Assembly: GCA_016871755.1 (NCBI GenBank)
Contig: VHCJ01000009.1
Location: 1 to 64,000 of the forward strand
Length of the DNA stretch: 64,000 nt
From: Verrucomicrobiota bacterium
Lineage (GTDB): Bacteria > Verrucomicrobiota > Verrucomicrobiia > Opitutales > Opitutaceae
Reading direction: 5' to 3'
The notes under the pieces were generated by a model, which was given only the letters and a program-made list of their open reading frames with translations, had not been told where the DNA came from and did not search any database. The position numbers and the translations under genes were made by a program. This document shows, in pieces, positions 26,803 to 36,496 of the stretch (position 1 is the first letter of the stretch; each line of letters starts with the position of its first letter).

Positions 26803-29766
26803 ATGCTTCCTCCGATCCTTCGCCGTGCTGCCTCGGGCGCCCGCCGGAACGCGGGCGACGCTCCGTCTCCCTGCTCATGCCGGGAGGGTCGCCGCCCGCA
26901 GTGGTTCGCGCGGAGGGTTTCGAGATGGCTCCTCGCGCTCGTCCTCGCCTTCGCGGCCGTGCCCGGCGCCGATGCCCAGTCGCCAGCCCGGGCGGGTCGC
27001 TGGGCTCATGAGACGAGCCGACTGGCGCCGGATCCGGGCGTCGTCTGGGGTCGCTTGGAGAATGGCTTCCGCTACGCCCTTCGGCCGCACGCCGGGGTCC
27101 CCGGTCGGGTGGTGCTTCAACTCATCGTGCTCTCCGGATCGCTCGATGAACGTCCGGACGAACGTGGGATGGCGCACTACCTCGAGCACCTCGCCTTCGG
27201 CGGGACCGAGGATTTCCTGCCGGGCGAGATGGTGCTGCTCTTCCAGCGACTCGGCATGGAGTACGGGAGCGACGTGAACGCGCAGACCACGTTCGACTCG
27301 ACCATCTACCGCCTTGATTACCGCCGCGCCGATCCGCTCCTGCTTCGGGATGGGCTCCGTCTCTTCCGGGGCTTTGCGGACGGACTGGCGTTCGATCCTC
27401 AGGTCATCGAACGGGAGAGAAAAGTCGTCCTCGCTGAACTTCGCCTTCGCAATACACTCGCGGGAAAGCGCGAATTGGCGTCCCTGCCGGTGGTGTTTCG
27501 GGGGCTCGCGTTCCCAGAGCGCAGCCCGGGCGGCAGCGAGGAGCAGATCGCGCGGTTCACGCGGGAGCAGTTCATGGCTTTCTACCGGCGAAATTACCGG
27601 CCGGACCTGATGGTGTTGGTCGTCACGGGCGACATTGGGGTGGCGGCGATGGAGTCGGACATCCGGGAGCGCTTCGGCAGCATGAGTCGGCCGGTGGGTC
27701 CGCCCCCGGTCCGGGATGAGGGGCGCCTGAACGCCCGGGCCTTGCGGGCGGGGGTGCTGCCGTTGGCGGGCATGTCGGCGGCGGCCGTCGAGGTGGCGAC
27801 GGTGGCGCCCCGCCCGGCTGGGGCCGAGACCCAGGCCCAGCGGGAGGAGGAGCAGAAGCGGGACCTCGTGATGCGCCTCTTTTCGCAGCAACTGGCGGCG
27901 GAAGGTTTGGGCGACGGGGGGATCGAAGCAGGCTACAGCGAGTTGCTCGGTCACGGAGTGGCGACGGTGCGGGCGATGGTGCCGGCACCGGCGTGGTCCG
28001 CCGGGGTGACGACGCTGGATACCAGCGTCCGCCGGGCGCTGGAGTTGGGTTTCGCGGGCACCGTGGTGACGGAGGCCCGGCGCGAGGAACTGCGGCGCCT
28101 CGCCCTGCTCCGCGAGCAGTTGCCGACGCTGGATCCGTCCGTGCTGGCGGATGCCCTGGTGGAATCGATCACGGAGCACCGGGTCTTCGTGGGACTTGAG
28201 CAGTCGCTGGCGTGGCGGGCGGCGTGGCTGGAGACCTTTGGTCCGTCCGAGGCGCAGCAGGTGTTTCGCCGGCTTTGGGCGCCGGCATCCCTGGCCTTCC
28301 ATGTCTCCGGTGGCGTCGGCGTGGAACTGAAATCGCAGAAGATCCTCGATGAAGTGGCGAAGGCGCGTCGCGGTCGCGTCGCGGCGCTGCCGCCGCGTCC
28401 GCCTGAGGACCGCGTGCCCTACCGCCTCCCGACTTGGGGACCGCCGGGGGAGGTGGCGGCGCGGACCGATCTGCCGGCCCTTGGCGCGGCCCTGCTCCGC
28501 TTCCGCAATGAGGTCCGCCTGAACGTGGTGTCGCGTCGCCAGGAACCGGGGATCGTGCACCTCGTGGTCCGTGTGGGAACCGGGCTCCTCGAAATGCCGG
28601 GAACCCGCCCGGCGCTGAAGGAGTTTGGCCTCAACACCGTGCTGGCCAGCGGAACCGAGCACCTGCGCGGCGAGACGCTTCGGGCGCTCGTGAGCCAGCG
28701 GTTCCTCGATTTCAGCTTCGACGTGGCGGACCGGGATGCCTTCGCGTTCCGCGCCACCGTCCCGGCGGATGAAGTCACCACGTTCCTCGGCGTCGTGGCG
28801 GACATCCTGCACCGCCCGCGATTCAGCAGCTTGGCGCACGCGGAGCAGCGGATGAATGCGGCGATGGGCCGCATGGCCGGCAGTTCGGGCATGGGCGACG
28901 GCATGCGGGCGCTCAACGACCGTCTCTTCCGCGGCGATGCGCGCTTCACCTCGGGGTCGCCGCTCGATTACATCGCAATGAGCGCCGAGGACGTGCGCCG
29001 CTGGATGGAGGCGCCTCTGGCGCGCGGCTACGTCGAGGCCACCGTGGTGGGTGACATCACCGAGGAGGCCACCGTCGAGGCGGTCGCGCGCACGCTTGGA
29101 TCCCTGCCTCCCCGGGCGGCGGACAAGTCCACCGCCACGCCGGTCAGGCCGGCGCAGGTGACGGCGCGACCGGGCTTTGAGCGGATCGAGTTCACCGGCG
29201 AGCAAAACACCGGTCTCGTGGTCGGCACGTGGCCGACGAACGAACTCCGCGAGGTGCGCGACCAAGCCGCCCTCGAGATTCTCACCAAGATCGTCGAACT
29301 CCGGGTGCGGGCCGAGGTGCGGGAACGCCTTGGCCTCGCCTACTCGCCGTCAGCGAGTTTGTCGGCGTTCGACGGTTTTCCCGGCTTCGCGCTCCTCCAG
29401 ACCCAGATCGACTGTGACCCGGCGGACGCGGAGCGCGTCGCACGGCTGGTGGAGCAGATCGGCGCGGAACTCGCCGCGGGCGGGATCAACGAAGGCGAAT
29501 TCATCGGTTCCCGCGGCATCCTGAAAAGCCAGCTGCAGCGGTCCTTCCGCGAGAACGGATTCCTCGTCACCCTGCTCAGCCGCGCCCAGGAACGGCCGGA
29601 GGAGCGGGAGCAGATCCTGGGTCTGGCCGATGGGCTGATTGACAGTGTCGAGCGGGCCGACGTGGAGCGCTGGGCGGCCTCGCTCCTGCGGCGCGAGAAT
29701 TGCCGCGCCGCGGCCGTGGTCCCGAAAGCCTTCATCGGCGTCTACCAGCTCTCGGATAAACCGTAG
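26803..29766 (+). CDS. M16 family zinc metalloprotease (insulinase/pitrilysin type), exported
   Basis: 987 residues, about normal for two-half M16 proteins. A hydrophobic signal segment lies at about 42-58 ('WLLALVLAFAAVPGADA'), so the real start may be downstream of the ATG at 26803. The inverted zinc motif HYLEH is at 125-129, with the third ligand Glu205 and Glu212 in 'ERERKVVLAEL', giving HxxEH-x75-E. The inactive C-terminal half (about 560-987) carries 'RAEVRERLGLAYSPSASLSAFDGFPG', the conserved R/Y segment. It should be a periplasmic or outer-membrane peptidase that degrades peptides in a closed chamber. No partner M16 gene is adjacent; it converges on the TlpA-like gene. Confidence 0.92.
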   Translation: MLPPILRRAASGARRNAGDAPSPCSCREGRRPQWFARRVSRWLLALVLAFAAVPGADAQSPARAGRWAHETSRLAPDPGVVWGRLENGFRYALRPHAGVPGRVVLQLIVLSGSLDERPDERGMAHYLEHLAFGGTEDFLPGEMVLLFQRLGMEYGSDVNAQTTFDSTIYRLDYRRADPLLLRDGLRLFRGFADGLAFDPQVIERERKVVLAELRLRNTLAGKRELASLPVVFRGLAFPERSPGGSEEQIARFTREQFMAFYRRNYRPDLMVLVVTGDIGVAAMESDIRERFGSMSRPVGPPPVRDEGRLNARALRAGVLPLAGMSAAAVEVATVAPRPAGAETQAQREEEQKRDLVMRLFSQQLAAEGLGDGGIEAGYSELLGHGVATVRAMVPAPAWSAGVTTLDTSVRRALELGFAGTVVTEARREELRRLALLREQLPTLDPSVLADALVESITEHRVFVGLEQSLAWRAAWLETFGPSEAQQVFRRLWAPASLAFHVSGGVGVELKSQKILDEVAKARRGRVAALPPRPPEDRVPYRLPTWGPPGEVAARTDLPALGAALLRFRNEVRLNVVSRRQEPGIVHLVVRVGTGLLEMPGTRPALKEFGLNTVLASGTEHLRGETLRALVSQRFLDFSFDVADRDAFAFRATVPADEVTTFLGVVADILHRPRFSSLAHAEQRMNAAMGRMAGSSGMGDGMRALNDRLFRGDARFTSGSPLDYIAMSAEDVRRWMEAPLARGYVEATVVGDITEEATVEAVARTLGSLPPRAADKSTATPVRPAQVTARPGFERIEFTGEQNTGLVVGTWPTNELREVRDQAALEILTKIVELRVRAEVRERLGLAYSPSASLSAFDGFPGFALLQTQIDCDPADAERVARLVEQIGAELAAGGINEGEFIGSRGILKSQLQRSFRENGFLVTLLSRAQERPEEREQILGLADGLIDSVERADVERWAASLLRRENCRAAAVVPKAFIGVYQLSDKP

Positions 29767-29836: not shown

Positions 29837-32800
29837 TCAGTTGCCGCGCAGCGCGTTGCGGCGCTTCAGGTCCTCGGCGCCCTTGGCGACGATTTCCGGG
29901 GCGACCTTGACCCCGGCCTTGGCGAGGGCGGCGTCGAGGATGACTTCGCCCTCCATGTAGCCGCCGACGATGTCGACGATCTTGCCGTCGCGATCGATGA
30001 TGAACTGCGTCGGGATGCCGCCGACGCCGTAGAGCGTGCGGGAAATGTTCTTGTCGCCGCGCTCCGCCACATCATGGGTCCAAATGATGTCGGGGTATTT
30101 GGACTGATTGGCCCGCACCCAGCGCTCGAACGCACCGCGGGTGTCGCTGGTGCACGAACCGAGGACGACGACGCCCTGGTCCTTGTACTGCGCTGCGACC
30201 TTCTGGGTGTGCGGCATGGCGGCCATGCAGGGCCCGCACCACGTGGCCCAGAAGTCGAGGATGACGACCTTGCCCTTGAAGTCGGAGAGACGGACGTCCT
30301 TGCCGGCGAGATCCTGCGTGGTGAAGTCCGGCGCCTTGGCGCCGACCTTGAGCATCTCGCGACGGGGCGGGGGAGGGGCTTCCTTGGACTCTTCGCGGGT
30401 GAACACGCGGGCGGGCTGGTCCTCGGGCTTCAGTGTGATGCCGGCGCGGAGGAGGAGGTTGCCGAGCGATTCCTTGACCCGTTCGCCGGTGCCGACGAAG
30501 AAACCGACCACGTGGCCCTGGGCATCGATGACCACGGTGTGCGGAATCGGTGCCATCATGCCGCCGGCGAGCTTCATCGGGACGACCTTTTCCATGTGGG
30601 CGCGTTGCGTGGCCGAGAAGGCCTTTTTCTCGTCGTCGGACATTTCGTTGAAGTCCTTCTCCGGCTTCGGGCTGGAGCCGACAGGATCGAAGACGATCGG
30701 GAACGCGACGCCGGCCGCGCTGGCTTCGCGCCAGGTTTGGTAGGCCTCGCGGCTGCCGTAGGCGGCGAGTCCAAGGACCTGAAACCTCTGGTCGGCGTAG
30801 CGCTTGGCGTAGCCGTTGAGGAAGTCGATCCCGTCCTGTCCCGGGCCTCGGCTGGCGCCCCAGACGGTGATGACCGTGACCTTGCCAGCGGTGACGCTCG
30901 CGAGTGAAACGGCCTGGCCGGCGGCGTCCTCCACCGTGACCTCGGGCAACGGCGCGCCGTTGGCGGTGCGCAGGTAGCTGTCCCGGAACTGGGGCTTCTT
31001 CGCGGCCTCAATCGCGGCGGCGGCGCGTTCCTTCTCGGCGTCGATGGCGTCCGCGAGCTGCTGACGTCCGCGGGCGGCGACGGCCGGGTCGACCTTCACG
31101 CCGACGGAGGCGAGGGCGGCTTCGGCGCGGGCATCTTCCTTGCCGTTGTTGCCGACGAGGGTGGCGGCAATCTTGCCGTCGCGGCCGATGATGAACTGCG
31201 TCGGGATGCCGGTCACACCGTAGAGGCTGGCCGAAGCGCGTTGCTCGAAGGTGGGCGTGTTGCGGGCGTTGGGATCGAAGACGAATTGGAGGTTCGGGTA
31301 CTTGGGCTGGTTCTTCGGGATCCACTGCTTGAACGCGGCGATCGTGTCGCTCGTGCCGGACGCAAGGACGACGACATCCTGGTCCTTGTACCGGGCCGCG
31401 ATTTCCTGGGCGTGCGGGAAGGACGCGATGCACGGTCCGCACCAGGTGGCCCAGAAGTCGAGGATCACGACCTTGCCCTTGAAGTCGGAAAGACGGACTT
31501 CACGACCGGTGACGTCCTGCATGACAAAATCCGGGGCGATCACACCGGCGCCCAGCAGCGCCGGACGTGCGGCGGCCGCGGCGGCCGTGGTGGCCCCGGC
31601 GGGCGGAGCTTGGATCGTGGCGGCGGGGCGCACGGAGGCGGTCCCGGAGCCAGCGGCGGCCTTCTCCTGCTCCGCGTGGAAGGCATCCAGCACGCCGCGG
31701 AGCAGCTGGGCGTCGGCCTCGGTCAGCCGGACGCCGGCGCGGACGATCGGTTCGCGGAGCCAGCCGGAGACCTTCGGGCCGGCGCCGACGATGCCGCCGA
31801 CGAGTGAGCCGTCCTTGCGGATGACCGCGTAGGCCGGGTAGAGGCCGATGCCAAACTGGGTGTTGGCGGCGCTCTCGAGGAAGGCCTTGCCGGCGGGGTC
31901 CCACGAGACGGTGAAGCCGGCGTCCGCCATCTTCTCGCGATCGTACCAGGCGTCGAACTCGGCCTTTTCGGTGGCGACGTTGATCGCCCAGACCTTCAGG
32001 CCTTGGTCGGCGTAGGCTTTCTGGATGGCGGCGACGTCCGCGATGGGCGAACGGGCACCGGTCCAGAAGGCGATGAACACCGGGGAACCCTTGAAGCTGG
32101 AGAGGCGAATCTCCTTCCCGTCGCGGCCCTGTACCGCGAAGTCGGGCACCGCTTCGCCGGAGGCCAAGCGGCCGAGGCGGGCGGTCGGGAGGAACTTGGC
32201 GGGCTGGGCCATCGTCTTGCCCATGGCGGGAATGACCTTGGGGCGGGCATCAGCGGCCGGCTCCGGCGGAAGGTGGGAGGTATCGATCGGCAGGCCGGCC
32301 TTGGCGAGCAGGCGGGTGACGGCGGGGTTTTCGCCGGCGCCGCCGCCGGTGGTGGTGCCGATGATGCGGCCGTCCTTGCCGATCATGAAGAGCGACGGGA
32401 AGCCGGTCACATGGTACTCGGTGTTAAAGACCGACTTGGCCCAACCGTCCCGGCCCGCCGGGTCGAAGGCGGTGCGGAAGGCGTACTTGGCGCCATTGCG
32501 CTTCACCCAGCCGTTGTAGGCCTCGAGCGTGTCGTTGGCGCAGACCGCCAGGAGGACGAAGTCATTTCCGGCGAACTTGGCCGCGAGTTCGCTGTTATGC
32601 GGCATGGCCGCGACGCAGGGGCCGCACCACGTGGCCCAGATGTCGAGGAGCACGAGTTTGCCGCGCAGGTCCGACAGCCGCAGCGTCTGTCCGTCCGGCG
32701 TGCGCACCGCGAAGTCGGGGGCCATGTCGCCGGCCTTGAGGCGCGGCGGGGGGCCGCCAGCGGCGGGCGCGGAGGCTGCCGCCTGAGCGGAGCCGGGAAG

Positions 32801-32869
32801 AGGCGCGAGGCACAGCCCGAGGGCAAGGAGCGCGATGGCGGAACGGAGCGGACGGAGGAGACGTTGCAT
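29837..32869 (-). CDS. Exported protein of five thioredoxin-like (TlpA/redoxin) domains
   Basis: 1010 residues, several times a normal TlpA. A signal peptide (about 1-30, 'AIALLALGLCLAPLPGSAQA') is followed by five redoxin domains. Domain 1 (about 44-195) has CGPC at 82-85. Domain 2 (about 238-385) has RSPI at the same place (273-276). Domain 3 (about 438-595) has CGPC at 477-480. Domain 4 (about 635-815) has RGPG at 674-677. Domain 5 (about 840-1000) has CGPC at 878-881. Each active domain keeps 'ILDFWATWCGPC' and a cis-Pro loop ('GIPTQFII'). So three domains look redox-active and two are cysteine-free. TlpA proteins act in the periplasm on cytochrome c maturation and other thiols. The gene lies 1.3 kb from dsbD, a plausible electron source. 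Confidence 0.93.
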   Translation of the reverse strand: MQRLLRPLRSAIALLALGLCLAPLPGSAQAAASAPAAGGPPPRLKAGDMAPDFAVRTPDGQTLRLSDLRGKLVLLDIWATWCGPCVAAMPHNSELAAKFAGNDFVLLAVCANDTLEAYNGWVKRNGAKYAFRTAFDPAGRDGWAKSVFNTEYHVTGFPSLFMIGKDGRIIGTTTGGGAGENPAVTRLLAKAGLPIDTSHLPPEPAADARPKVIPAMGKTMAQPAKFLPTARLGRLASGEAVPDFAVQGRDGKEIRLSSFKGSPVFIAFWTGARSPIADVAAIQKAYADQGLKVWAINVATEKAEFDAWYDREKMADAGFTVSWDPAGKAFLESAANTQFGIGLYPAYAVIRKDGSLVGGIVGAGPKVSGWLREPIVRAGVRLTEADAQLLRGVLDAFHAEQEKAAAGSGTASVRPAATIQAPPAGATTAAAAAARPALLGAGVIAPDFVMQDVTGREVRLSDFKGKVVILDFWATWCGPCIASFPHAQEIAARYKDQDVVVLASGTSDTIAAFKQWIPKNQPKYPNLQFVFDPNARNTPTFEQRASASLYGVTGIPTQFIIGRDGKIAATLVGNNGKEDARAEAALASVGVKVDPAVAARGRQQLADAIDAEKERAAAAIEAAKKPQFRDSYLRTANGAPLPEVTVEDAAGQAVSLASVTAGKVTVITVWGASRGPGQDGIDFLNGYAKRYADQRFQVLGLAAYGSREAYQTWREASAAGVAFPIVFDPVGSSPKPEKDFNEMSDDEKKAFSATQRAHMEKVVPMKLAGGMMAPIPHTVVIDAQGHVVGFFVGTGERVKESLGNLLLRAGITLKPEDQPARVFTREESKEAPPPPRREMLKVGAKAPDFTTQDLAGKDVRLSDFKGKVVILDFWATWCGPCMAAMPHTQKVAAQYKDQGVVVLGSCTSDTRGAFERWVRANQSKYPDIIWTHDVAERGDKNISRTLYGVGGIPTQFIIDRDGKIVDIVGGYMEGEVILDAALAKAGVKVAPEIVAKGAEDLKRRNALRGN

Positions 32870-33189: not shown

Positions 33190-33897
33190 ATGGCCTCCCG
33201 AGGTTCCGCCTTGTCTCCCGTCCGCGCCCCGGTGCGGGCGCGCGCGCATCCGGTGCTGTCTTTGATCGGGAACACGCCGCTGATCCCGCTGCGGTTCGAG
33301 CCGGAGGGCATCACCCTCTACGCCAAGGCCGAATTCATGAACCCGAGCGGTTCGATCAAGGACCGGCTGGCGCTGACGATCCTCGGCGACGCGCGGCGGC
33401 GGGGCTGGCTGCGGCCGGGGACGACCATCCACACCGGCCGGGAAATCCTCGCCCAGATGCAGAGCCGGGTAGACGCGTTCGTCAGCGGCTACGGCACGGG
33501 CGGTACCCTCAACGGCGTGAGCCGCGCCCTGCGCAAGGCGTGCCCGCGCGTGCAAATCGTCGCGATGGAGCCCGCCGAGGCCGCCATGCTTTCGGGGGAA
33601 TCCCCCTGCTGCCACAGCATCGAGGGCGTGGCGGGCGGCTATTTGCCCCCGTTGCTCAAGGCGGTCTCGGTGGATGCACAGGAAAAGGTCCCGAGCGCCG
33701 AGGCCTTGCGCATGACCCAGCGCCTGGCCCGCGACTTCGGTTTGCTGGTCGGCACTTCGTCCGGCGCGAACGTCATCGCGGCGCTCCGGACCGCCCAACG
33801 GCTCCGGCGTGGCGCGCGGGTGGTGACCATCCTGTGTGACCGGGCGGAGCGGTATTACTCAACGCGGTTGTTCGCGGGCGTCGGGGGTGACGCGTGA
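33190..33897 (+). pseudogene. Cysteine synthase family protein with an internal in-frame deletion
   Basis: 235 residues against about 300-320 for CysK/CysM. The N-terminal part is normal ('VLSLIGNTPLIPL', PLP-binding Lys57 in 'NPSGSIKDRLAL', 'GWLRPGTTI'). At residue about 80 the sequence jumps to 'HTGREILAQM' and continues normally with 'VDAFVSGYGTGGTLNGV' (GTGGT at 102-106) and the C-terminal 'GTSSGANVIAAL'. The missing segment of about 80 residues holds the TSGNTG substrate loop and much of the mobile small domain. The enzyme can therefore hardly make cysteine from O-acetylserine and sulfide. The frame is kept, so it is either a recent deletion allele, a remodelled protein, or an assembly collapse. 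It precedes dsbD. Confidence 0.82.
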
Positions 33898-34156
33898 GAG
33901 CGGCTGGTCTTTGGAACTCGCCAGCGGCGCGGGGATTCCGGAACCGGGCGTTGGCGCAGGGGTCTTTGCACCCGGCGTTCGCTGGCGAGTCGGCGTCTGC
34001 CCGGTCGGTCGGCTTGCGTCGTCCGTTCGTCCCGGCATCGTTGTTCTTGCCCATCGGAGGGGCTCGGCCAATCGCGGCGCGAGCGTCCTGCCGCCATGGC
34101 GTGCCGCGGGGCGCGTCTTCCCTCCGAATCTTTCCTCTCTGAAATCCTCTTTTCCT

Positions 34157-36496
34157 ATGAACCTTGGTCGATGGTCTGTGATGTGGCTGGCGGGTGTGAT
34201 GGCTGCGGTGGGCGCGCTGGCGCCGTTCACGCGGCTGGAGGCCCGCCCGGTGCGCAACGGCGCGGTCCAGGTTGAACTCGTCGCCCGGCAGACCGCGGTG
34301 CAGCCGGGGCAGCCTTTCTGGGTCGCGCTGAAGGTGGACCACGACGCCCCGTGGCACACCTACTGGATCAACGCCGGCACCGGCTATCCGACATCAATCG
34401 CGTGGACGCTGCCGGAGGGTTTCGCGGCGGGCCCCATCGTCTGGCCCGCGCCCCACACCGTGAAGGACACGGCGGGCAACGTCACGGGCAACGGCTATGA
34501 AGGCACCGTCTACCTCTTCACGCAGATCACTCCTCCGGCGACGCTGGCGGCGGGATCGAAGGTCGAGTTGCGCGCGGCGGCCGAGTGGCTGATGTGCGCG
34601 GAATCGTGCATGCCGGGCGATGCCAAGGTCGCCCTGACTTTGCCCGTGGCTGCGGAGGCCGGAGCGGAGAATGCAGCGGTGGCGAAGGCCTTTGCGGACC
34701 TTCCCCATGATCCGGCACCGTGGACGGTGTCCGCGCGGCGGGATGGCGCGAAGGTCTTCCTGACCGTCAGTGCACCGCCGGGCGCCCCGGTGCACGCGCC
34801 CGAGGGGCTGCATTTCTTCGAGGAACAGGCGCACATCGATTATGCGGCGCCGCAGGCCCTCACCACGGCGGCGGGCAGTTGGACCCTGCAGTTGGCGGCA
34901 GCGGCGGATGCGCCGGCCGATGCGGCGCGGCTCAAAGGGTTGCTCGTTGCCAAGAACGGCTGGACGGCGGGCGAGGGCTATGCGGCGCTGGCGGTGGACG
35001 TGCCTCTGACGGCGGGGGCGGGCGCGGCGGCCGCCGCAGGGGTGGCGCCGGCGGGCGGTGCCCCGGGGAAGCCGACGGCGAGTGGCGCTGGCTCGACCGG
35101 CGATGCCGGCGGATCCGCCTCGGCGGCGAAGGGCGGGGGAAGCGCGAGTGCTCCGGCGTGGGCAACCGCGGGCGGCGGGTCCGCCGCAGGGGCGGTGGCA
35201 ACGGGTGGGGCGGGGTCGGCGTCCAGTGCGGGGCTCTTGGGCACGGTGCTGCTGGCCTTCCTCGGTGGGGCGGTGCTGAACCTCATGCCCTGCGTCTTTC
35301 CGGTCCTGGGCATCAAGGTGCTCGGCTTCGTGAACCAGTCCGGCAGCGACCGCGGCAAGGTGGTGCTGCACGGGCTCGTCTTCACGGCGGGGGGGCTGGG
35401 GTCGTTCTGGGCTCTGGCAGGGGCGCTGCTCGTCTTGCGGGCGGGCGGTGAGCAACTCGGCTGGGGGTTCCAGCTGCAGTCGCCGGCCTTCGTTTATGGC
35501 ATGGCGGTCTTCATGCTCGTGTTCGCGCTGAACCTCAGCGGCCTCTTTGAGGTGGGTCTCTCGGCGACCGGCGCGGGGGCCGGACTGCAGAGTCAGGAAG
35601 GCCTCGGCGGATCCTTCTTCACCGGCATGCTGGCGACGCTGGTGGCGACGCCCTGCAGCGCGCCCTTCCTCGCGCCCGCCCTCGGGGCGGCGCTGGCGCT
35701 GTCGGCGGTGGAGTCCCTCGTCGTCTTCACGGCGATCGCGGTGGGGCTCTCCGCTCCGTACCTGCTGCTCTCGCTGTTCCCCCGCGCCGTGAAACTGCTT
35801 CCGCGTCCGGGTGCGTGGATGGAGACTTTCAAGCAGGTGATGGCCTTTCCCCTCTACGCGACCGTCGGTTGGCTGCTGTGGGTGCTCGCCGCGCAGACGG
35901 CCGGTGACGATTACGGTCTGCTGATGATTCTGTTCGGTTTCGTGCTCGTCGCGATGGCGGCGTGGGCCTACGGCCGGTTCGGTCAGGCGCACGGCAAGCC
36001 GACCCGGCAGCGCTGGGGGACGGCGTTCGCGCTGGTGCTGCTGGTCGGCGGCGTCGCGCTCGGCTGGCCGCAGCCTTCGGCGCCGGTGACGGTGGGCGGA
36101 GCGTCCGCGACTGCCGGCGGCACCGCCGGCAAGGGCGCGTATGTCGTCGCGTGGCAACCGTGGAGTTCCGAGGCGGTGACGGCGGCGCAGGCCGCCGGGC
36201 GGACGATCTACGTCGACTTCACCGCGCGCTGGTGCGCGACCTGTCAGACGAACAAGGCGGCGGTGTTCTCGTCGGCCGACGTGCTGGCGGAGCTGGCGCG
36301 CCGCGATGTCCTGTTGCTGCGCGCGGACTGGACCAACAAGGATCCGCGCATCACGCAGGAACTGGCGAAGTACCAGCGCTCCGCCGTGCCGTTCAACCTC
36401 GTGTACCATCCCGGCCAGCCCGCCCCGCAGGTGCTGCCGGAGTTGCTGACGCCGGGCATCGTCCTCGACGTGCTCCGTCGGGTCGGCGCGCCCTGA
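34157..36496 (+). CDS. dsbD: Thiol:disulfide interchange protein DsbD
   Basis: 779 residues from the ATG at 34157, which opens a signal peptide; the frame is open to 33836 but without a better start. The N-terminal periplasmic domain (about 30-270) has its Cys pair region 'LMCAESCMPGDAKVAL' near 150. A Gly/Ala/Ser-rich linker of about 80 residues follows. The eight-helix electron-transfer core has its two membrane cysteines in 'LNLMPCVFPVLGIKVLGF' and 'VATPCSAPFLAPALG'. The C-terminal thioredoxin domain has CATC at 693-696 ('FTARWCATCQTNKAAVF'). It carries electrons from cytoplasmic thioredoxin to periplasmic thiol proteins. The five-domain redoxin gene nearby is a likely client. Confidence 0.93.
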   Translation: MNLGRWSVMWLAGVMAAVGALAPFTRLEARPVRNGAVQVELVARQTAVQPGQPFWVALKVDHDAPWHTYWINAGTGYPTSIAWTLPEGFAAGPIVWPAPHTVKDTAGNVTGNGYEGTVYLFTQITPPATLAAGSKVELRAAAEWLMCAESCMPGDAKVALTLPVAAEAGAENAAVAKAFADLPHDPAPWTVSARRDGAKVFLTVSAPPGAPVHAPEGLHFFEEQAHIDYAAPQALTTAAGSWTLQLAAAADAPADAARLKGLLVAKNGWTAGEGYAALAVDVPLTAGAGAAAAAGVAPAGGAPGKPTASGAGSTGDAGGSASAAKGGGSASAPAWATAGGGSAAGAVATGGAGSASSAGLLGTVLLAFLGGAVLNLMPCVFPVLGIKVLGFVNQSGSDRGKVVLHGLVFTAGGLGSFWALAGALLVLRAGGEQLGWGFQLQSPAFVYGMAVFMLVFALNLSGLFEVGLSATGAGAGLQSQEGLGGSFFTGMLATLVATPCSAPFLAPALGAALALSAVESLVVFTAIAVGLSAPYLLLSLFPRAVKLLPRPGAWMETFKQVMAFPLYATVGWLLWVLAAQTAGDDYGLLMILFGFVLVAMAAWAYGRFGQAHGKPTRQRWGTAFALVLLVGGVALGWPQPSAPVTVGGASATAGGTAGKGAYVVAWQPWSSEAVTAAQAAGRTIYVDFTARWCATCQTNKAAVFSSADVLAELARRDVLLLRADWTNKDPRITQELAKYQRSAVPFNLVYHPGQPAPQVLPELLTPGIVLDVLRRVGAP

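What the first reader, a model, noticed from the sequence alone, without database searches (positions are those of the whole stretch)
29837..32869. Five-domain redoxin protein alternating active and cysteine-less thioredoxin folds
Seen: CGPC in domains 1, 3 and 5 (82-85, 477-480, 878-881), but RSPI and RGPG at the matching sites of domains 2 and 4. Known: TlpA-type proteins normally have a single domain. Inference: an active/inactive/active/inactive/active chain may work as a periplasmic thiol relay or scaffold, with inactive domains as spacers or client-binding units. DsbD is encoded 1.3 kb away.
Basis: partly seen in the sequence, partly recalled or inferred. Interest (0 to 1): 0.75.

Follow-up and report, generated by a model that had tools for sequence, protein, structure and literature searches.

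The report
Beaded periplasmic redoxin, alternate beads cysteine-less
A secreted bacterial protein made of five linked thioredoxin-like units, in which units one, three and five keep the reactive cysteine pair and units two and four have lost it, belongs to a conserved family in Opitutaceae whose genes usually lie near dsbD or behind an outer-membrane import receptor, and so looks like a bacterial counterpart of the mixed-domain disulfide enzymes of eukaryotic cells.

Summary
Confirmed: window 29837-32869 (minus strand) encodes a 1010-aa secreted protein of five TlpA/ResA-type folds, CGPC in domains 1, 3, 5, RSPI and RGPG in 2 and 4. It is no quirk of one genome: 73 of 252 Opitutaceae genomes (17 of 49 genera) carry relatives. 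In 35 five-domain frames the cysteine pair is at position 1 in 35, 2 in 0, 3 in 35, 4 in 2, 5 in 34. Forms with 2 to 7 domains exist, the 7-domain one also split over two adjacent genes. D2 and D4 keep fold and cis-proline and evolve under purifying selection. dsbD, single-copy in the 8 genomes tested, is a neighbour in 33/70 genomes; a TonB-dependent receptor is directly upstream in 36/70, often behind FecR and an ECF sigma factor; an M16 protease is near in 15/70. Best reading: a DsbD-fed disulfide reductase whose cysteine-less domains hold clients, perhaps unlocking imported disulfide-bonded (poly)peptides for proteolysis. The reductase role rests on fold and context, the import role is inference, no client is known. 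New variant of a known kind; ten paper searches listed nothing on it.

The parts
29837..32869 (-). Gene for the five-domain redoxin, 1010 aa
   Evidence: full-length relatives
32780..32869 (-). N-terminal signal peptide (residues 1-30; hydrophobic stretch, AxA-type end); Cys20 lies inside it with Leu before it, so no clear lipobox. Read by eye, no predictor run
   Evidence: Sequence; low pLDDT for 1-42
32285..32740 (-). Domain 1 (residues 44-195), catalytic type, plus a third cysteine C110
32615..32626 (-). CGPC 82-85
31715..32176 (-). Domain 2 (232-385), no cysteine, cis-Pro P345 kept
32042..32053 (-). RSPI 273-276, at the place of CxxC
31094..31555 (-). Domain 3 (439-592), catalytic type, no third cysteine (Gly)
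31430..31441 (-). CGPC 477-480
30416..30979 (-). Domain 4 (631-818), no cysteine, helical insert before the cis-Pro P776
30839..30850 (-). RGPG 674-677, at the place of CxxC
29906..30361 (-). Domain 5 (837-988), catalytic type, third cysteine C906
30227..30238 (-). CGPC 878-881
33836..36496 (+). dsbD ORF (DsbD_N, DsbD_TM, C-terminal thioredoxin-like domain); the true start is probably near 34154
   Evidence: the only DsbD_TM hit in this genome
33190..33897 (+). Cysteine-synthase-like gene between redoxin and dsbD; lacks 267 nt in frame against relatives
26803..29766 (+). M16 metalloprotease gene with HxxEH (HYLEH), convergent with the redoxin, about 70 bp away

Best explanation
A periplasmic, soluble, multi-domain disulfide reductase. 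DsbD, the only one in the genome, would pass electrons from the cytoplasm to the CGPC sites of D1, D3 and D5. The cysteine-less D2 and D4, which keep the thioredoxin fold and cis-proline, would hold extended or partly unfolded clients between the catalytic domains, as the non-catalytic b-type domains of PDI do. In many relatives the gene stands directly behind a TonB-dependent receptor gene, often itself preceded by FecR and an ECF sigma factor, and in some it is followed by an M16 protease; the likely clients are therefore disulfide-bonded peptides or small proteins brought in by the receptor, which must be reduced before the protease can thread them. Shown: fold (predicted), alternation, conservation, purifying selection, gene neighbourhoods. 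Inferred: electron donor, reductase direction, client binding by D2/D4, imported clients. My own split: DsbD-fed reductase with non-catalytic accessory domains about 0.75; role in import and digestion about 0.4.
For: ResA/TlpA-like folds. Five-domain ORFs (35): CxxC at position 1 in 35, 2 in 0, 3 in 35, 4 in 2, 5 in 34. All 100 multi-domain genes (70 genomes, 16 genera), by best-matching position model and without relabelling: D1 55 of 55, D2 0 of 56, D3 78 of 79, D5 82 of 82; D4 71 without and 17 with the pair, the 17 being the extra active domain X. Cis-Pro kept in 34/34 D2 and 47/47 D4 rows; dN/dS of D2 and D4 0.036-0.206 in six pairs. dsbD within the fetched flanks in 33/70 genomes, 9/16 genera, 21 of them within 3 kb, although 8/8 genomes tested have a single DsbD_TM gene. 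No DsbA, VKOR or DsbB hit in the window's own genome, which fits a reductive rather than oxidative role. TonB-dependent receptor directly upstream on the same strand in 36/100 genes (35 of the 88 with at least 600 nt upstream), 36 genomes, 14 genera; sigma, FecR and receptor all upstream in 23 genes of 19 genomes, 11 genera (families checked on examples). dsbD or that receptor in 53/70 genomes, both in 16. M16 in the fetched flanks in 15/70 genomes, 3 genera. Of 27 adjacent receptors longer than 900 aa, 22 have no cysteine after residue 45, 4 have one, 1 has two, so the receptor is hardly the client.
Against: In the window no receptor, FecR or sigma hit was found with the queries used (only M16 and DsbD); of the nine other genus members, five have a receptor 1.3-5.9 kb downstream of the five-domain gene on the other strand and four none in the stretch held. 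The M16 link is in 3 of 16 genera. These genomes are rich in receptors, 15-117 Plug domains in 8 genomes, so an adjacent one by chance is of the order of 1-2% (my estimate). 37 of 70 genomes show no dsbD in the fetched flanks; some flanks are short, but of 43 genomes with at least 5 kb on both sides of a gene 24 have it and 19 do not. In G185 dsbD is about 19 kb away and in G029 on another contig. G093 and G007 do have DsbA-like hits, G093 also VKOR. Genomes share ancestry, so counts are not independent. The active X domain shows that the D4 type is not cysteine-less everywhere. No client, redox potential or expression data.
Confidence: 0.55

Rival explanations
1. A bacterial PDI: it rearranges or makes disulfides in the cell's own secreted and outer-membrane proteins, with DsbD keeping it reduced.
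For: The mix of catalytic and non-catalytic thioredoxin folds resembles PDI, ERp57 and ERdj5; D2/D4 conserved. DsbD-fed isomerases of the DsbC type are established knowledge (recalled).
Against: The window's genome has no DsbA, DsbB or VKOR hit, so there is little sign of an oxidative pathway to correct; the adjacent receptors are nearly cysteine-free; the gene is often in a FecR/sigma-linked receptor row, unlike a housekeeping folding enzyme; 73 of 252 family genomes carry it at the threshold used. Absence of oxidases was judged on three Pfam families only.
Confidence: 0.2
2. Apocytochrome c reduction (ResA/CcmG role), with extra domains of no special meaning.
For: Closest solved structures by sequence and fold are ResA/DsbE types; NCBIfam's ResA model scores above its cut-off (a score summed over several stretches).
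Against: The same genome has other relatives, among them a short single-domain one, that could do this; I recognised no cytochrome-maturation gene among the recurrent neighbours shown, but did not search for them by family; the family is below threshold in 179 of 252 related genomes.
Confidence: 0.1
3. D2 and D4 are passive spacers or decaying copies; only D1, D3 and D5 matter.
For: D2 and D4 diverge faster than the active domains (invariant columns 19% each against 34-53%); D4 has the highest or second highest dN/dS in six of six pairs and D2 exceeds every active domain in five of six.
Against: dN/dS well under 1 in every pair (some dS values near or above 1, so rough); each position is a clade or nearly so across genera, so the inactive state has persisted since before those genera split; D4 is retained in the 2- and 3-domain forms, 13 and 12 genes. 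Conserved surface residues were not mapped.
Confidence: 0.15

Closest known systems
ResA / TlpA / CcmG(DsbE)-type periplasmic thiol-disulfide oxidoreductases (Pfam AhpC-TSA, Redoxin)
   Same: Fold and sequence of every domain; CGPC in the active ones; secreted; DsbD/CcdA-type electron donor expected
   Different: Known members (recalled) have one catalytic domain, some with an unrelated N-terminal part, and usually a membrane or lipid anchor; here 2-7 such domains in a soluble chain, some cysteine-less
PDI family: PDI, ERp57, ERp72, ERdj5, ERp90
   Same: Chains of thioredoxin folds mixing CxxC domains with non-catalytic b-type domains, which give substrate binding or chaperone activity (passage of the introduction of PMC3040216)
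   Different: Different branch of the thioredoxin fold (TlpA-like here), bacterial, strict alternation in the 5-domain form; no relation beyond the fold was shown. ERp90 has five such domains but no canonical CxxC (PMC3040216, abstract passage)
Fus and other protease-associated import systems (FusA/FusC, YddB/PqqL)
   Same: Gene clusters with a TonB-dependent receptor and an M16 protease; imported protein is processed by the protease (abstracts of PMC6071955 and PMC6793856)
   Different: No redox partner is named there: 'thioredoxin', 'disulfide', 'TlpA', 'redoxin' and 'DsbD' occur 0 times in the main text of either. Whether the receptors here are FusA-like was not tested. Receptor and M16 stand together only in some relatives, not in the window
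C. jejuni FetE/FetF thioredoxins
   Same: Putative thioredoxins encoded in an iron-acquisition gene cluster (abstract of PMC10783030); FetE is among the fold matches (8t4c_B)
   Different: Two separate proteins rather than one chain; [quoted passage not shown]

Membership tests
TlpA/ResA-type redoxin (superfamily level) | AhpC-TSA/Redoxin fold in each unit | tested here: met
   Five stretches; D2 and D4 alone above the gathering score; fold
TlpA/ResA-type redoxin (superfamily level) | CxxC active site | tested here: met
   Met in D1, D3, D5; not met in D2, D4
TlpA equivalog (NCBIfam NF047696) | Whole-protein score above the curated cut-off | tested here: not met
   189.7 bits against 230
ResA subfamily (NCBIfam NF002854) | Whole-protein score above the curated cut-off | tested here: inconclusive
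   311.1 against 170, but summed over four matched stretches
ResA/CcmG function | Reduces apocytochrome c | not testable with these tools
   Needs a mutant
PDI family | Score of the ER PDI model TIGR01130 | tested here: not met
   61.7 bits against 344.25
PDI family | Mix of catalytic and cysteine-less thioredoxin folds in one chain | tested here: met
   a resemblance of plan, not descent
Protease-associated import system (Fus type) | TonB-dependent receptor gene beside an M16 protease gene | tested here: not met
   Window: M16 adjacent, no receptor hit in the window with four receptor queries. Met in some relatives, e.g. L206
Protease-associated import system (Fus type) | FusA/YddB-type receptor with large extracellular binding site | not tested
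   -
DsbD electron-acceptor proteins | Reduced by the DsbD C-terminal domain | not testable with these tools
   Only gene linkage

The most novel reading that the evidence does not exclude
Opitutaceae evolved, independently of the eukaryotic ER, a PDI/ERdj5-like enzyme from TlpA-type domains: catalytic domains alternate with client-holding cysteine-less ones in a chain whose length (2 to 7 domains, in one or two polypeptides) is adjusted to the cargo, and it acts as the disulfide-opening stage between TonB-dependent uptake of folded peptides or proteins and their digestion by M16 protease, powered by the cell's only DsbD.
Probability: 0.35. Interest if true: 0.8.

Novelty: new variant of a known kind. 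Interest (0 to 1): 0.6.

Why it matters
Multi-domain disulfide enzymes with built-in non-catalytic domains are thought of as a feature of the eukaryotic ER; the bacterial periplasm is usually described with one- or two-domain Dsb proteins (both recalled). A natural series of 2- to 7-domain chains, including a 7-domain form split over two genes, would let one test what cysteine-less thioredoxin domains add to catalysis. If the receptor link is functional, it also adds a reduction step to TonB-dependent uptake of (poly)peptides; the two Fus-type import papers opened do not use the words thioredoxin or disulfide in their main text.

Tried and rejected
TonB-receptor adjacency: a first clustering of all neighbouring ORFs chained unrelated ORFs; a check with one receptor taken from it found four genes with such a hit nearby. 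A cleaner gene call (receptor next upstream in 30 of 76 genes) and tblastn with four other receptors gave the numbers quoted. Of three redoxin-linked receptors scanned, one passes Pfam's STN cut-off and two fall just under it, so 'FecA-like' is not claimed.

Two independent losses of the cysteines in D2 and D4: the tree puts D4 with the active domain X (99/97 support) and X has a shorter insert at the same place (X 30, D4 about 48, others in the family 20-24 residues), but the AU test does not reject D2+D4 as one clade (p 0.346), so I do not claim it.

Class labels: I relabelled as X those domains with CxxC whose best model was D4 or D1 at under 200 bits (17 and 3). By labelling alone this makes D4 look purely cysteine-less, so the report gives the counts without relabelling and by position in the chain. 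That X is a type of its own rests on the four X domains in the tree. Of 35 five-domain ORFs, 33 are active/inactive/active/inactive/active; G198 is active/inactive/active/active(X)/active; G182, cut by a contig end, reads active/inactive/active(X)/active/inactive. Dropped before the counts: 3 of the 73 genomes, in which only one-domain pieces passed (G017, G088, G257); genes with one domain or a best class score under 140 bits; 18 domains under 120 bits (7 with, 11 without the pair). The G082 D3 site reads SAPC.

Family outside Opitutaceae: phylum draw 12 of 387 and order draw 10 of 273 genomes with a match at 1e-30, all in the window's own family; how many drawn genomes lie outside it is not listed in full. 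Absence elsewhere is likely, not proven.

Literature: ten searches listed no paper on this family. Five returned nothing; searches matched 38 and 1,435 papers, of which I saw 10 and 12 titles. Queries were narrow and most subscription papers are not held. I recall, without a call, that Bacteroidota loci often join SusC/D, TlpA and M16 genes; one search found no held paper with those terms.
Full report
WHAT IS THERE. The minus strand of window 29837-32869 encodes 1010 aa with a signal peptide read by eye. There are nine cysteines: one in the signal peptide, three CGPC pairs (82/85, 477/480, 878/881) and two single ones, C110 and C906, each 25 residues after a pair. Domains 1 to 5 are 21-59% identical to each other, D3 and D5 most alike. 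Pfam, NCBIfam and PDB sequence searches place the domains with ResA/TlpA-type redoxins. AlphaFold2 gives five such units with linkers, two of them with long helices (384-406, 595-623), but no reliable mutual arrangement (pTM 0.39). Because the aligned rows of the full chain covered mainly D1 and D5, D4 was folded alone with an alignment of 47 rows: pLDDT 92, pTM 0.89, Z 18.3 over 140 residues to 3gl3_A. D2 was not folded alone; it rests on the full-chain model and on its Pfam score.

CONSERVATION. Near relatives: in the 57 genomes, the nine other members of the genus and one of another genus match over most of the length (one is cut by a contig end). In the ten complete five-domain proteins aligned, all six CGPC cysteines are invariant and none has a cysteine at the D2 or D4 site; C906 is in 10 of 10, C110 in 9 of 10, and D3 has glycine there. 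Family-wide: a profile search of 252 genomes of the family found 73 with a match at 1e-60, in 17 of 49 genera. I fetched stretches around the listed matches and parsed ORFs with domain models. This gave 100 genes with two or more domains and a class score of at least 140 bits, in 70 genomes and 16 genera. By best-matching model, CxxC is at D1 in 55 of 55, D2 0 of 56, D3 78 of 79, D5 82 of 82; domains best matched by D4 are 71 without and 17 with the pair, the latter an extra active type called X. By position in the 35 five-domain ORFs: 35, 0, 35, 2 and 34 with the pair. The commonest plan is the five-domain alternation (33 genes, 9 genera); D4-D5 (13) and D3-D4-D5 (12) follow (some shorter ones may be cut by contig ends). 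Chains D1-D2-D3-X-D3-D4-D5 occur as one gene in three genomes of two genera, and as two adjacent genes with overlapping open frames (D1-D2-D3-X, then D3-D4-D5) in G171, G172, G186, G188 and G081, of two other genera. A fused and a split form of one chain suggests that the two polypeptides work together; that is inference.

HISTORY. In a tree of 103 domains, D1, D2, D3 and D4 are each one clade across genera, and D5 is one but for a single-domain protein inside it. The chain is thus older than the genera that share it. Whether D2 and D4 lost their cysteines once or twice is open. Both diverge faster than D1, D3, D5 but stay under purifying selection: dN/dS 0.036-0.203 for D2 and 0.059-0.206 for D4 in six pairs. 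The cis-proline is in every D2 (34/34) and D4 (47/47) row aligned.

NEIGHBOURS. In the window the order is M16 protease (plus), redoxin (minus), a cysteine-synthase-like gene (plus), dsbD (plus), a GDSL-lipase-like gene (plus). The order redoxin, cysteine synthase, dsbD recurs in eight other genus members; in the ninth, G001, the contig ends in the cysteine synthase; in G002 the last two are 5.6 kb apart. Eight of eight genomes tested have exactly one DsbD_TM gene, and dsbD is within the fetched flanks in 33 of 70 genomes, 9 of 16 genera, never more than 7.4 kb away and within 3 kb in 21. A single-copy gene would fall within 10 kb of a given gene by chance in roughly half a percent of cases in a 4-Mb genome (my estimate; shared ancestry ignored). 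In many other genera another neighbour dominates: a TonB-dependent receptor directly upstream on the same strand in 36 of 100 genes (36 genomes, 14 genera), with FecR and an ECF sigma factor further upstream as well in 23 genes of 19 genomes (families confirmed on examples). Either dsbD or such a receptor is there in 53 of 70 genomes, both in 16. M16 genes lie downstream on the same strand of 15 genes in 10 genomes of two genera, and in the fetched flanks of 15 genomes of three genera, the window's own among them. In L206 the whole row sigma, FecR, receptor, redoxin, M16 stands on one strand, with dsbD on the other strand about 6 kb upstream. Receptors are common in these genomes (15-117 Plug domains), so a chance neighbour at 1-2% is possible, but not 36 of 100. 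The 27 adjacent receptors longer than 900 aa are almost cysteine-free, so the redoxin is hardly there to fold them.

MECHANISM. DsbD provides electrons; the CGPC domains reduce; the cysteine-less domains, with an intact cis-proline, hold clients. The window's genome shows no DsbA, DsbB or VKOR hit, in line with reduction rather than oxidation, though G093 and G007 do have DsbA-like hits. The receptor and protease context points to imported cargo with disulfides; in the window itself only the protease and dsbD are left near the gene. Only the anatomy and the neighbourhoods are shown; direction of electron flow, clients and the role of D2/D4 are inferred.

COMPARISON AND VERDICT. Works like: a PDI-type enzyme on a TlpA chassis. 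Member of: the TlpA/ResA superfamily at domain level only; not PDI by sequence score, not a Fus-type system in the window. Interest 0.6; novel reading 0.35 probable.

Noticed in passing
window 33190-33897, junction near 33430: The cysteine-synthase-like gene lacks 267 nt (89 codons, in frame) that are present in the three relatives aligned and, by the gap between tblastn pieces, in all eight relatives where both pieces were found; a real deletion or an assembly fault cannot be told apart here.
   Followed up: partly
own genome G000 and 5 relatives tested: No DsbB hit in 6 of 6 genomes, no VKOR in 5 of 6, no DsbA in 4 of 6, yet one DsbD in each of 8 tested: a mainly reductive periplasm?
   Followed up: partly
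window residues C110 and C906, and relatives: A third cysteine 25 residues after the CGPC pair: D5 16/17, X 4/4, D1 9/17, D3 0/20 in the tree set, where the eight outgroup rows have Ser or Thr. Role unknown.
   Followed up: partly
L207, L208, L215, L216, L178: Seven-domain redoxin split over two adjacent genes in two genera, fused in two others.
   Followed up: partly
L064:10814-12052 and similar: A LuxR-type regulator gene directly downstream of the redoxin on the same strand in 10 genomes of 4 genera by sequence cluster; two such genes checked by Pfam.
   Followed up: no
L075, L079: Candidatus Poribacteria ORFs with two adjacent active redoxin domains, perhaps an unrelated route to multi-domain redoxins.
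   Followed up: no
L051, L056: Several TlpA-type genes, most with a long N-terminal part, near one another in one relative.
   Followed up: no
own genome G000: 63 TonB-receptor Plug-domain hits in 3.7 Mb.
   Followed up: no
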